From assembly GCF_024585165.1 (NCBI RefSeq), contig NZ_CP029008.1:3162001-3226000 (forward strand): a stretch of DNA of 64,000 nt, in the 5' to 3' direction. The translations under genes and the position numbers were made by a program. How positions within the stretch are numbered: the first letter of the stretch is position 1; each line of letters starts with the position of its first letter. Below the pieces are notes generated by a model. It saw only the letters and a program-made list of their open reading frames with translations, was not told where the DNA came from and searched no databases. Below are positions 27,938 through 31,501 of this stretch, one piece after another. The stretch is from Bradyrhizobium sp. WBOS07. GTDB taxonomy: Bacteria > Pseudomonadota > Alphaproteobacteria > Rhizobiales > Xanthobacteraceae.

Positions 27938-28327
27938 TCAAACGCGACGACGCTTGCGCGGACGGCAACCGTTGTGCGGGATCGTGGTCACGTCGCGGAT
28001 CGAGGTGACGGTGAAGCCGGCGGCCTGAAGCGCGCGGAGCGCCGATTCGCGGCCCGAACCGGGACCGGCGACTTCGACTTCCAGCGTGCGCATGCCGTGC
28101 TCCTGCGCCTTCTTGGACACGTCCTCGGCGGCAACCTGCGCGGCGTACGGGGTCGACTTGCGCGAGCCCTTGAAGCCCATCGTGCCGGCGGAGGACCAGG
28201 CAATCGTGTTGCCCTGCGCGTCGGTGATGGTGATGGTCGTGTTGTTGAACGACGAGTTCACATGCGCGACGCCGGAGGCGATGTTCTTGCGCTCACGACG
28301 ACGAACGCGGGTGGCTTCCTTGCCCAT
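27938..28327 (-). CDS. rpsK: 30S ribosomal protein S11
   Basis: This 129-residue protein has the S11 signature of [20 protein letters not shown], then [17 protein letters not shown] and the C-terminal [19 protein letters not shown]. It sits on the platform of the small subunit next to S18 and contacts mRNA near the E site. It lies between rpsM and rpoA in the alpha operon. Confidence 0.98.
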
Positions 28328-28449
28328 TGAGTCCCTTTCCTGAAGATCTCAAACGCCGCCGTAATGCCAGCGGCTACACCTGTGGAACGAAAGGCGCGCG
28401 GCGAACGGGCATCCCCGGTTCGCCGCACGCCGCGACTAGATTCGAAAAC

Positions 28450-28818
28450 TTACTTCTTCTTGCCGGCGATGGCTTTCGCCGGACCCTTGCGCGTGCGCGC
28501 ATTGGTGTGGGTGCGCTGGCCGCGCACCGGCAGACCGCGACGATGACGCAGACCGCGATAGCAGCCGAGGTCCATCAGACGCTTGATGTTGATACCGACC
28601 TCGCGGCGCAGGTCGCCCTCGACGAGATAGTCGCGGTCGATCACTTCGCGGATCTGGAGCACTTCAGCGTCGCTGAGCTGATTGACGCGACGATCCACGG
28701 GGATCTTCACCTTCTCCAGGATCTCACCGGCGATCTTCTGACCGATGCCATGGATGTACTGGAGCGCGATCAGCACGCGCTTGTTGGTGGGAATGTTCAC
28801 GCCGGCAATACGGGCCAC
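28450..28818 (-). CDS. rpsM: 30S ribosomal protein S13
   Basis: This 122-residue protein starts at a GTG (28818) with AGGAG upstream. [15 protein letters not shown], the central [21 protein letters not shown] and the C-terminal [17 protein letters not shown] identify S13. It contacts the P-site tRNA and L5 through bridge B1b. It is the first gene after the adk-rpsM gap, which contains a good promoter and two hairpins. Confidence 0.98.
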
Positions 28819-28835
28819 GGCCTTCTCTCCTGTTG

Positions 28836-28855
28836 CCGATCCTCGTCAGGATCGG
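28836..28855. promoter_or_regulatory. Hairpin in the rpsM leader
   Basis: CCGATCC and GGATCGG with a 6-nt loop stand about 18 nt upstream of the rpsM GTG. Its stem would lie just before the ribosome site and could matter for translational feedback; in E. coli the alpha operon is repressed by S4 through a pseudoknot in the S13 leader. The analogy is only positional. Confidence 0.45.
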
Positions 28856-28967
28856 GCTTTAAGTGCTTGTGTTCTCGGGCAGGTGTTCACAAACGCGAAC
28901 ACGACGCCCTCCCCCGGTCTTCCTGGGGCCCGGCATCGTCTGAAACTATCCGACTTGGATGCGGGGC

Positions 28968-28997
28968 TTATTAGGGGATTCCGGGGGCTTTCGTCAA
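28968..28997 (-). promoter_or_regulatory. Sigma-70-like promoter for the rpsM-rpsK-rpoA-rplQ group
   Basis: On the minus strand, TTGACG (28992-28997), an 18-bp spacer, and TAATAA (28968-28973). It lies just past the adk stop codon and about 150 nt before rpsM, giving a long leader. An overlapping reading with 17 bp is CTAATA. Confidence 0.6.
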
Positions 28998-29003
28998 CCG
29001 CTG

Positions 29004-29906
29004 CTAGCGCTTGGCTCGCTTTTTCGTGACCTTTTTTGCAGCCTTCCTGGCACCCTTTTTGACCGCCTTTTTGGCGGCCTTCTTGGTGGCCTTCTTGACC
29101 GTCTTCTTGACGGTCTTCCTTGCTGCTGTCTTGGAACGCTTGACGGTCTTCTTGGCCGCCTTTTTGACGGATTTGGCTGGTTTGGCGGCCTTTTTGGCTG
29201 CTTTCACCGCCTTCTTGGCCGATTTCTTCGCCGCCTTGGTCTTTTTGGCCGGGGCGGCCTTGGCCGCGCTCCTGGTCTTTGCCTTGGTGGCTTCCTTGGC
29301 CTGCATCTTGGCGCCAGCCGCGCCCAATGCCTGGAGCTGGCGATCGATGGCGCGGGTGACCTCGTCGATGGCCATCATGCCGTCGATGGTGGAGAGCTTC
29401 CGGCGCTCGGAATAGTAGTGAATCAGCGGTTCCGTCTGGCTGCGGTAGCTGGCTAACCGCTTGGTCAGGACCTCCGGCGTGTCGTCGAGCCGGACCTCCT
29501 CGCCGCGCTCCCGCATCTGGGCGACGCGGGTCTCGACACGGTGCAGGAGCGCGCTCTCGTTGACGCGGAGCTCGATCACGGCGTCCAGCTTGAGGCGCTT
29601 GTCCTTGAGCAGCTCGTCCAGCGCCTCGGCCTGCGGCACGGTGCGCGGGAAGCCGTCGAGGATGAAACCATTCTGGGCATCCGGCTGATCGATGCGATCG
29701 GAGATGATTCCGACCACGACCTCGTCGGGCACGAGGCCGCCGCTGGCCATGATCTCCTTGGCCTTCAGCCCGACCGGCGTTCCGGCCGCAACCGCGGCAC
29801 GCAGCATATCGCCGGTCGAGAGCTGGACGATGCCGTAGCGCTGCACCAGCAGCTGCGCCTGCGTCCCCTTGCCCGACCCCGGCGGTCCCAGAAGTATAAT
29901 TCTCAT
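29004..29906 (-). CDS. adk: Adenylate kinase with histone H1-like lysine-rich tail
   Basis: The protein is 300 residues against about 190-220 for bacterial Adk. Residues 1-203 form a normal kinase: P-loop GPPGSGKGT at 7-15, [32 protein letters not shown], and a short lid between RETRVAQ-like and [10 protein letters not shown], with no zinc Cys. It catalyses ATP+AMP = 2 ADP. Residues about 204-300 are a tail with 39 Lys and 6 Arg in 97 positions, built from KKAAKK/KKAVKK units separated by Ala/Val/Thr, with one acidic residue. Such tails occur in H1-like and some HU-like proteins and would bind nucleic acid. The start at 29906 is preferred to the 25-residue longer reading. Confidence 0.95.
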
Positions 29907-30110
29907 CGGCGTACGCCCCCCGGATTGGTGAGCGATACGTCGCGCACCTGTGTTTGAAAAATCGCGAACAGTGCAAACCACAATCGGCGCTGCACCGCTA
30001 CCCTACCATAGAGGAGCAGATGGGTGGACGCCAAGAAGGGCTTTGAAATCAGTGATTGCAGAGCCAGTGGGAGCAGCTCTGCCGAAGCGACCGAACGATC
30101 GCCTCAGGGG

Positions 30111-30155
30111 CCGCGCGCTGCTCGCGCGGCGAATCGGCGGCGCGGTCGCGCCGCC
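30111..30155. repeat. Two adjacent GC palindromes between secY and adk
   Basis: CCGCGCG/CGCGCGG around 5 nt (30111-30129) and GGCGGCGCG/CGCGCCGCC around 2 nt (30136-30155). They lie in the 263-bp secY-adk gap, where most spacings of the superoperon are under 50 bp, and may act as a processing or attenuation site. Confidence 0.5.
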
Positions 30156-30169
30156 TTCAGAGCACGCCT

Positions 30170-31501
30170 TTAGCGGCGGCGGCCGCGCAGCTTCGACTTC
30201 CGGATCAGGCCTTCATACTGGTGCGCCAGCAGATAGCCCTGCACCTGTGCCACCGTATCCATGGTGACGCTGACGACGATCAGCAGCGAGGTGCCGCCGA
30301 AGTAGAACGGCACCGAGGCATAGGAGATCAGGATCTCCGGGATCAAGCAGACGATCGCCAGATAGATCGCGCCGAGCACGGTGATGCGCGAGAGCACATA
30401 GTCGATATATTCCGCGGTGCGCTCGCCGGGCCGGATGCCCGGAATGAAGCCGCCGTGCTTCTTCAGATTGTCCGCGGTCTCGGTCGGGTTGAACACGATC
30501 GCGGTGTAGAAGAAGGCGAAGAACACGATAAGCGCCAGATACATGAACAGGAACAGCGGACGGCCGTGACCGAGCTGGGTGGTGATCCACTGGAACCATT
30601 CCGGCCCACTGCCGGCGTTGAAATTCGCGACCGTCGTCGGCAGCAGCAGCAGCGAGGACGCGAAGATTGGCGGGATCACACCGGAAGTGTTGAGCTTGAG
30701 CGGCAGATGCGAGGACTGGCCCTCGAACATCTTGTTGCCGACCTGGCGCTTCGGATACTGGATCAGGAGGCGGCGCTGCGCGCGCTCCATGAACACGATG
30801 AAGGCGATCACGGCGACGGCCATGATGATGACGACCAGAATCAGGCCGGTCGACATCGCGCCCTGACGGCCGAGCTCGAGCATGTTGGCGAGCGCGGCGG
30901 GCAGCTCGGCGACGATGCCCGCGAGAATGATCAGCGAGATGCCGTTGCCGATGCCGCGCGAGGTGATCTGCTCGCCCAGCCACATCAGGAACATGGTGCC
31001 GCCGGTCAGCGTGACAGAGGTCGAGAGCAGGAAGAACAATCCGGGCTCGCTGACGACATTGCCGGCGCCCTGAAGTCCTACCGCGATGCCGTAGGACTGG
31101 AACGCGGCCAAAATCACCGTGAGAAAGCGGGTATACTGATTCAGCGTCTTGCGGCCGGCTTCGCCTTCCTTCTTCAGCGCCTCGAGCTGCGGCGAGACGG
31201 TGGTGAGAAGCTGGATGATGATCGAGGCCGAGATATACGGCATGATGTTCAGCGCGAAGATCGCCATGCGGTTGATGCCACCGCCCGCGAACATGTTGAA
31301 CATGCCGAGGATGCCGCCGGCCTGCGAGCGGAACACCTGTTCCCAGGCACTCGGGTCGATGCCGGGCAGCGGAATGTAGGTCCCGAGCCGATAAACGAGC
31401 AGCGCACCCAGGGTGAACCAGATGCGCTTCTTCAGTTCGTCGGCCTTGGCGAACGCACTGAAATTGAGATTGGCTGCCAGTTGTTCCGCTGCAGAGGCCA
31501 T
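30170..31501 (-). CDS. secY: Protein translocase subunit SecY
   Basis: This 443-residue polytopic protein has ten membrane helices. Visible SecY landmarks are LGALLVYRLGTYIPLPGID in TM1/plug region, GIGNGISLIILAGIV, and the C-terminal PFYFGGTSLLIVVSVTMDTVAQVQGY. It forms the protein-conducting channel with SecE and SecG in the inner membrane. It is between rplO and adk, as usual. Confidence 0.98.
   Translation of the reverse strand: MASAAEQLAANLNFSAFAKADELKKRIWFTLGALLVYRLGTYIPLPGIDPSAWEQVFRSQAGGILGMFNMFAGGGINRMAIFALNIMPYISASIIIQLLTTVSPQLEALKKEGEAGRKTLNQYTRFLTVILAAFQSYGIAVGLQGAGNVVSEPGLFFLLSTSVTLTGGTMFLMWLGEQITSRGIGNGISLIILAGIVAELPAALANMLELGRQGAMSTGLILVVIIMAVAVIAFIVFMERAQRRLLIQYPKRQVGNKMFEGQSSHLPLKLNTSGVIPPIFASSLLLLPTTVANFNAGSGPEWFQWITTQLGHGRPLFLFMYLALIVFFAFFYTAIVFNPTETADNLKKHGGFIPGIRPGERTAEYIDYVLSRITVLGAIYLAIVCLIPEILISYASVPFYFGGTSLLIVVSVTMDTVAQVQGYLLAHQYEGLIRKSKLRGRRR

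What the first reader, a model, noticed from the sequence alone, without database searches (positions are those of the whole stretch)
29004..29906. Adenylate kinase fused to a histone H1-like Lys/Ala tail
Residues 1-203 are a complete kinase, but the last 97 contain 39 Lys and 6 Arg with one acidic residue in KKAxKK repeats. Such tails bind nucleic acids in H1-like proteins. An essential energy enzyme encoded within the ribosomal superoperon and able to bind DNA or RNA could place ADP/ATP exchange at the nucleoid or on nascent ribosomes. The gene is followed immediately by a promoter, so part of the tail might also have been kept for its DNA.
Basis: partly seen in the sequence, partly recalled or inferred. 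Interest (0 to 1): 0.72.

Follow-up and report, generated by a model that had tools for sequence, protein, structure and literature searches.

The report
Adenylate kinase with lysine-rich tail
In Bradyrhizobium and many related bacteria the housekeeping enzyme adenylate kinase carries a long tail that evolution keeps positively charged, and the last few codons of that tail also look like control DNA for the next ribosomal gene.

Summary
Window 29004-29906, minus strand, encodes a complete short-type adenylate kinase (Adk) plus a 97-residue tail with 39 Lys, 6 Arg and 1 acidic residue. The tail is no error: it is present in 35 of 35 same-genus relatives and in 27 of 46 representatives of other genera of the family, and absent in 19 of 19 loci from other families that read to a stop. 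NCBIfam already models kinase plus tail as one family (PRK13808); I found no paper on its function.

The tail has two parts under different selection. The body (residues 204-290) changes fast but keeps its charge: Lys-Arg differences outnumber Lys-Glu 62 to 7, although both are A-G changes. The end (codons 291-297) is frozen at synonymous sites and lies just upstream of a conserved TTGACG promoter-like site of rpsM; seven relatives that lost the tail keep this DNA untranslated.

Binding to DNA, RNA or polyphosphate is likely but untested; placing ADP/ATP exchange at nucleoid or ribosomes remains inference.

The parts
29004..29906 (-). adk, 300 codons plus TAG stop: adenylate kinase with Lys/Ala-rich tail
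29331..29906 (-). kinase, residues 1-192 (short-type Adk)
   Evidence: Pfam ADK; matches to solved adenylate kinases reach residue 195 at most among the 60 listed
29037..29297 (-). tail body, residues 204-290: variable in sequence and length, charge kept
   Evidence: pN/pS 0.449; Lys-Arg 62 against Lys-Glu 7 differences
29007..29036 (-). tail end (cap), residues 291-300 [10 protein letters not shown]
   Evidence: amino acids 90-100% conserved in 113 genes
29016..29036 (-). DNA element within codons 291-297 (AAAAAGGTCACGAAAAAGCGA), frozen at synonymous sites; kept untranslated in tail-less relatives
28992..28997 (-). TTGACG, -35-like box of the putative rpsM promoter, starting 6 bases after the adk stop
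   Evidence: 100% in 121 unique sequences; site found in 42 of 46 genus loci, 0.3 expected
28968..28973 (-). TAATAA, -10-like box, 18-base spacer (the -10 register is my choice)
   Evidence: bases 98-100% in 121 sequences
28786..28858 (-). Alpha_RBS-like RNA element over the rpsM start, below the curated cut-off (31.8 against 38 bits)
28450..28818 (-). rpsM (S13), 122 codons, GTG start; downstream gene
30170..31501 (-). secY, upstream gene

Best explanation
Adk in this family carries a long, probably disordered, H1-like polycation that holds the enzyme by charge on a cellular polyanion, most likely nucleic acid (DNA or RNA, ribosomes included). Selection acts on bulk positive charge, not on sequence. 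Shown here: the fusion, its distribution, selection for charge in the body. Inferred: disorder, binding, location, benefit (local ADP/ATP/AMP exchange or retention of the enzyme). The last 7-10 codons do a second job as the upstream part of the rpsM (alpha-operon) promoter, so the end of the tail has its sequence because that DNA is needed; I hold this second part at about 0.85, the tether at the figure below.
For: Tail in 27 of 46 other genera with Lys+Arg 28-48% and median acidic share 1.5% although length runs from 53 to 176 residues. Body: pN/pS 0.449, 438 gapped codons, Lys-Arg 62 against Lys-Glu 7 in 53 independent close pairs (p 4e-12 if equal); the third-position spectrum would predict equal shares (0.326 each). 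Precedents: AlgP and PhaF H1-like tails (PMC9239181, abstract and passages), TopA lysine repeats (PMC7398561, passages). End: 7 codons with mean synonymous diversity 0.010 against a kinase minimum of 0.143 per 7-codon window; element 86% identical among 7 tail-less loci, upstream flanks 37% and 51%; in 26 of 26 tail-bearing loci with a site the adk stop lies within -25 to +18 bases of TTGACG.
Against: No binding or location data. 19 of 46 genera lack the tail, and one genus lost it. In the kinase Lys-Arg also exceeds Lys-Glu (10 to 1), so the asymmetry is not peculiar to the tail. Body pN/pS of 0.449 allows weak constraint. The consensus scan found no promoter, the -10 is imperfect, and no transcription start was checked. 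The last three residues keep their amino acids (94-98%) while varying synonymously, so the end is not purely DNA-driven. No structure was predicted.
Confidence: 0.55

Rival explanations
1. Polyphosphate docking: the tail binds polyphosphate granules rather than nucleic acid and places Adk where polyphosphate-derived ADP and AMP turn over.
For: AlgP, with an H1-like tail, associates with polyphosphate granules, and its C-terminus is needed for granule spacing (PMC9239181, abstract and passages). A review reports that overproducing E. coli PPK1 enhanced adenylate kinase activity and gave polyphosphate:AMP phosphotransferase activity (PMC3163519, passages).
Against: No data in this family; no link of the tail to polyphosphate genes was tested.
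Confidence: 0.2
2. The tail does something else at the protein level: it binds acidic lipid or an acidic protein, or affects solubility or stability, without a nucleic acid or polyphosphate partner.
For: Charge selection does not name a partner.
Against: Polycations of this density bind nucleic acids in described cases.
Confidence: 0.15
3. The whole tail, body included, is kept for its DNA (A-rich spacer or upstream activation of rpsM) and the peptide is a by-product.
For: The end is kept for its DNA; the body has more AAA codons (1140 of 3206 Lys) than the kinase (56 of 973), and tail-bearing genes always abut the site (26 of 26).
Against: Body synonymous sites are free (pS 0.275 against 0.191 in the kinase) and the codon-position asymmetry 204 silent, 62 Arg, 7 Glu needs selection on protein. 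Other Lys-rich genes of the genome also have raised AAA shares (0.15-0.35 in six).
Confidence: 0.05
4. The run A AAA AAG at the cap is a programmed -1 frameshift site giving a second C-terminus.
For: In frame at the cap in 92 of 113 genes.
Against: The -1 product is not conserved: 8 residues in 49 of 113, 59-80 in 59, other lengths in 5. The A run is explained by the DNA element, which persists where it is noncoding.
Confidence: 0.02

Closest known systems
NCBIfam NF010381 / PRK13808 adenylate kinase
   Same: Kinase plus tail as one model of 335 positions; the window protein scores 491.9 against a cut-off of 426, residues 1-297
   Different: The model names only adenylate kinase; no function of the tail, no promoter overlap
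AlgP and PhaF (Pseudomonas)
   Same: Folded or helical N-terminal part plus disordered Lys/Ala-rich H1-like C-terminus (PMC9239181, abstract and passages)
   Different: Those tails are KPAA repeats on granule-associated proteins, not on a metabolic enzyme; no homology claimed
Actinobacterial TopA, HupB/HupS and Ku lysine-rich tails
   Same: Lysine repeats added to the C-terminus, resembling histone H1 (PMC7398561, passages)
   Different: Those proteins act on DNA; Adk does not
Promoter inside the 3' end of the upstream gene
   Same: A promoter for the downstream gene overlaps or abuts coding sequence (recalled as common in bacteria)
   Different: Here it fixes a C-terminal peptide, in some genera reading through the -35 box as RLTK, and the DNA outlives the peptide

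Membership tests
Adenylate kinase (PF00406 / PRK13808) | Profile match over the kinase | tested here: met
   191.7 bits, cut-off 26.8; PRK13808 491.9 bits, cut-off 426
Adenylate kinase (PF00406 / PRK13808) | P-loop and catalytic residues | tested here: met
   K13, R36, D84, R88, R123, R139, R150 invariant in 23 sequences; roles recalled
Adenylate kinase (PF00406 / PRK13808) | ATP + AMP = 2 ADP activity | not testable with these tools
   no assay
H1-like polycationic tails (works like, not a homology family) | Lys/Ala-rich, nearly no acidic residues | tested here: met
   39 K, 6 R, 28 A, 1 acidic of 97; composition kept in 27 of 46 other genera
H1-like polycationic tails (works like, not a homology family) | Selection for positive charge | tested here: met
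   62 Lys-Arg against 7 Lys-Glu; the kinase shows 10 against 1
H1-like polycationic tails (works like, not a homology family) | Intrinsic disorder | not tested
   structure jobs were not taken
H1-like polycationic tails (works like, not a homology family) | Nucleic acid or polyphosphate binding | not testable with these tools
   no assay
Sigma-70-type promoter of rpsM | Conserved -35 and -10 at fixed place | tested here: met
   42 of 46 genus loci, 0.3 expected by base shuffling; in 113 genes TTGACG lies 172-185 bases before the rpsM start
Sigma-70-type promoter of rpsM | Match to the E. coli-type consensus | tested here: not met
   scan listed 0 sites in 28300-30200; -35 fits, -10 does not meet the scan's rule
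Sigma-70-type promoter of rpsM | Mapped transcription start | not tested
   B. japonicum map PMC4842269 has its tables in supplements not open to me; rpsM does not occur in the main text

The most novel reading that the evidence does not exclude
A core energy enzyme is tethered by an H1-like tail to a polyanion compartment (nucleoid, nascent ribosomes or polyphosphate) across a large alphaproteobacterial family, giving local adenylate exchange, while the end of the same tail is dual-coding: its codons are the upstream element, and in some genera the -35 box itself, of the alpha-operon promoter, so one stretch of DNA ties Adk's C-terminus to ribosomal protein expression.
Probability: 0.3. Interest if true: 0.72.

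Novelty: new variant of a known kind. Interest (0 to 1): 0.5.

Why it matters
It would extend H1-like tethering from DNA and granule proteins to a central metabolic enzyme and make local adenylate exchange in bacteria testable in a tractable genus. It is also a clear natural example of a C-terminal peptide whose sequence is set by an overlapping promoter-like element, shown by genomes that lost the peptide but kept the DNA. A practical warning follows: deleting the end of adk would probably also disturb rpsM.

Tried and rejected
Frame or assembly error: rejected, tail present in 35 of 35 same-genus relatives. Tail copied from another protein of the genome: the tail as query found, besides itself, only three weak matches (best E 0.39); a KKxx codon pattern finds other Lys-rich genes, by composition only. 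Body kept as A-rich DNA: rejected, see rivals. Frameshift product: rejected. RsmY-like and CRISPR-repeat-like Rfam hits in the tail DNA (14.4 and 16.6 bits, cut-offs 57 and 42): chance. The element elsewhere in the genome: 6 matches to GTCACGAAAAAGCGAG with up to 2 mismatches, one of them this site, 2 in the control; not followed up, so I cannot say whether it is a regulator's site. One search's count of kinase codons used unaligned starts (only 7 columns passed); it was redone, and only the tail rows are used.

Papers: searches found 0; one search listed 2 papers, neither with the words adenylate kinase; one search listed 1, on ARF GAPs; PRK13808 occurs in 1 paper, on fungal toxins (listing only). 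Searches gave leads only. Passages of PMC8776046 and PMC8407463 were seen and add nothing decisive. Only open-licence papers are held.

Dropped rows and limits: L179 has no rpsM on its contig; L230 is cut at a contig end; 20 of the 23 outgroup genomes with a match were fetched. 137 coding sequences collapse to 121 unique; 113 with the stop six bases before TTGACG were used for codon tests. Loci L058-L137 came from six peptide patterns of which two lie in the tail, so they favour tails. Genus representatives need not stand for their genus: two genera (g44, g58) hold both kinds. In the class-wide search (385 genomes, list cut off) no listed match outside the own family passed residue 243; match ranges are not a reading of each tail.

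Full report
What is there. The gene lies on the minus strand, 29906 to 29004, 300 codons, between secY and rpsM, with 185 bases between its stop and the rpsM start. Residues 1-192 are a short-type adenylate kinase: Pfam ADK 191.7 bits; matches to solved adenylate kinases reach residue 195 at most among the 60 of 96 listed. Residues 204-300 contain 39 Lys, 6 Arg, 28 Ala and one acidic residue.

It is real and widespread. Of 35 same-genus relatives, 35 carry the tail (G016 in two contig pieces). In one search, 26 of 27 same-genus genomes do, own genome counted; G342 has a frame break near residue 184 and a tail readable in another frame (L193). Of 80 named loci, 79 are titled Bradyrhizobium and one Afipia (a search that favours tails); all 80, and the 57 unnamed ones, have a tail. 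Of 46 representatives, one per other genus of the family, 27 have a tail of 53-176 residues beyond residue 192 and 19 do not. Of 20 loci from 20 other families of the order, 19 read to a stop without a tail and one is cut by its contig end. A quick tree of 98 rows (SecY, RpsM, RpsK, kinase) needs 13 changes of tail state, at least 8 forced by well-supported branches; shuffled labels need 32 on average. Six rows at the base of the family are tail-less, so one gain followed by several losses is the simplest reading; a few gains are not excluded. The tree carries long-branch warnings (L049, L128, L150, L184) and counts L193 as tail-less.

It is already catalogued. NCBIfam NF010381 (PRK13808) matches residues 1-297 above its cut-off. 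Paper searches found nothing on the tail; only open-licence papers are held.

The body is kept as a polycation. In 53 independent close pairs the body (residues 204-290) has pN/pS 0.449, the kinase 0.060, the last ten codons 0.189 (changes of two or three bases in a codon were split crudely). The synonymous rate of the body is not reduced (0.275 against 0.191). Lys codons differ by one base 326 times: 204 silent, 62 Arg, 22 Thr, 18 Asn, 11 Gln, 7 Glu, 2 other. Lys-Arg and Lys-Glu are both A-G changes with equal expected shares, so 62 against 7 (p 4e-12) points to selection against acid at the protein level. The kinase shows 10 against 1 on 40 changes: the direction is not special to the tail, but in the tail it acts on a stretch that keeps little fixed sequence. 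Across the 27 other genera Lys+Arg stays at 28-48% and the median acidic share is 1.5%.

The end is kept as DNA. In 121 unique coding sequences anchored on TTGACG, 23 bases at -39 to -17 are each at least 92% the same, the box is invariant, bases +16 to +33 are at least 96% the same but for two, while positions between vary. In 113 genes with the stop six bases before TTGACG, codons -10 to -4 (AAA AAG GTC ACG AAA AAG CGA) have a mean synonymous diversity of 0.010; the lowest 7-codon window of the kinase is 0.143, the median 0.276; the longest run of such frozen codons is 7 here and 1 in the kinase. At the Arg of this stretch CGA is used 111 of 112 times, in the kinase in 68 of 2016 Arg codons. 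Two of the frozen Lys codons are AAA in 112 of 112 and 112 of 113, in the kinase 56 of 973. The last three codons (Ala Lys Arg) vary synonymously yet keep their amino acids in 94-98%, so the protein end may matter too.

Natural experiments agree. Seven loci of one genus (L140, L194-L199) have Adk of 206-208 residues ending in another peptide; 78-253 bases beyond the stop the element and the box persist untranslated. Among them the element is 86% identical on average (lowest pair 73%), upstream flanks 37% and 51%, the bases between element and box 65%, the box 100%, the spacer and leader blocks 63-78%. Two other genomes of this genus (L201, L202) have full tails. One of the seven genomes, G119, has a contig of 3,402,093 bases, which I recall as the size of Nitrobacter winogradskyi Nb-255; that name comes from no call. 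In L029 the frame changes at the cap (ending GHEKAS) while the element is intact.

The promoter. TTGAC-N17-20-TA(A/T) lies 100-300 bases upstream of rpsM in 42 of 46 readable genus loci, 0.3 expected by base shuffling. In 26 of 26 tail-bearing loci with a site the adk stop lies between -25 and +18 of it: just before the box (-6, as here), as the TGA inside TTGACG (+4), or after reading through the box, giving the endings LTK or LTKRR and their like (+12, +18). In 16 tail-less loci it lies from -1214 to +4. The simple scan listed no site; it demands T at the sixth base of the -10, which TAATAA lacks. B. japonicum housekeeping promoters are described as TTG-N16-18-TATA (PMC4842269, passages), so the -35 fits and the -10 only partly. 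A below-threshold Alpha_RBS match over the rpsM start (28786-28858, 31.8 bits, cut-off 38, E 1.9e-5) fits an own alpha-operon transcript. No start site was checked.

How it most likely works. A polycation, probably disordered, tethers Adk to a polyanion. Precedents are the tails of AlgP and PhaF (PMC9239181, abstract and passages) and the lysine repeats of TopA (PMC7398561, passages). Nucleic acid is my first guess; polyphosphate is a serious rival. Shown: fusion, distribution, charge selection, constraint on the DNA of the end. Inferred: disorder, binding, location, benefit, and that the element is part of the promoter. The same genome holds other Lys/Ala-rich genes, one reading into a methionyl-tRNA synthetase, so such tails on housekeeping proteins may be a habit of this lineage.

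Verdict. Observation confirmed; interpretation partly supported.

Noticed in passing
L237 (own genome C1:2243068-2243321, minus; outside the window): A methionyl-tRNA synthetase (NCBIfam match of a 185-residue piece) is preceded in frame by a long Lys/Ala-rich stretch; its start codon was not worked out.
   Followed up: partly
L238, L240, L251, L258, L262 (own genome, outside the window): Five further open frames of 106-181 residues with KKxx repeats. One (L240) had only weak Pfam hits below cut-off, the best to SseC, which I take as chance from composition.
   Followed up: partly
28786-28858, minus: Alpha_RBS-like element over the rpsM start, below the curated cut-off.
   Followed up: no
L211 (G004); also G010 and G024: Second adenylate kinase copies about 50% identical to the window's; the one read (L211) is 198 residues without a tail.
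   Followed up: partly
L193 (G342): The one same-genus genome with a broken adk frame near residue 184; a tail with the usual end is readable in another frame. Real break or sequencing error cannot be told.
   Followed up: no
29031-29037, minus: In-frame A AAA AAG heptamer at the cap, present in 92 of 113 genes; explained by the DNA element rather than by frameshifting.
   Followed up: yes
tail body, about codons 51-70 from the stop: Share of AAA among Lys codons peaks at 0.60 and 0.47 here, against 0.25-0.30 in the neighbouring bins 21-50 and 71-80; not explained.
   Followed up: no
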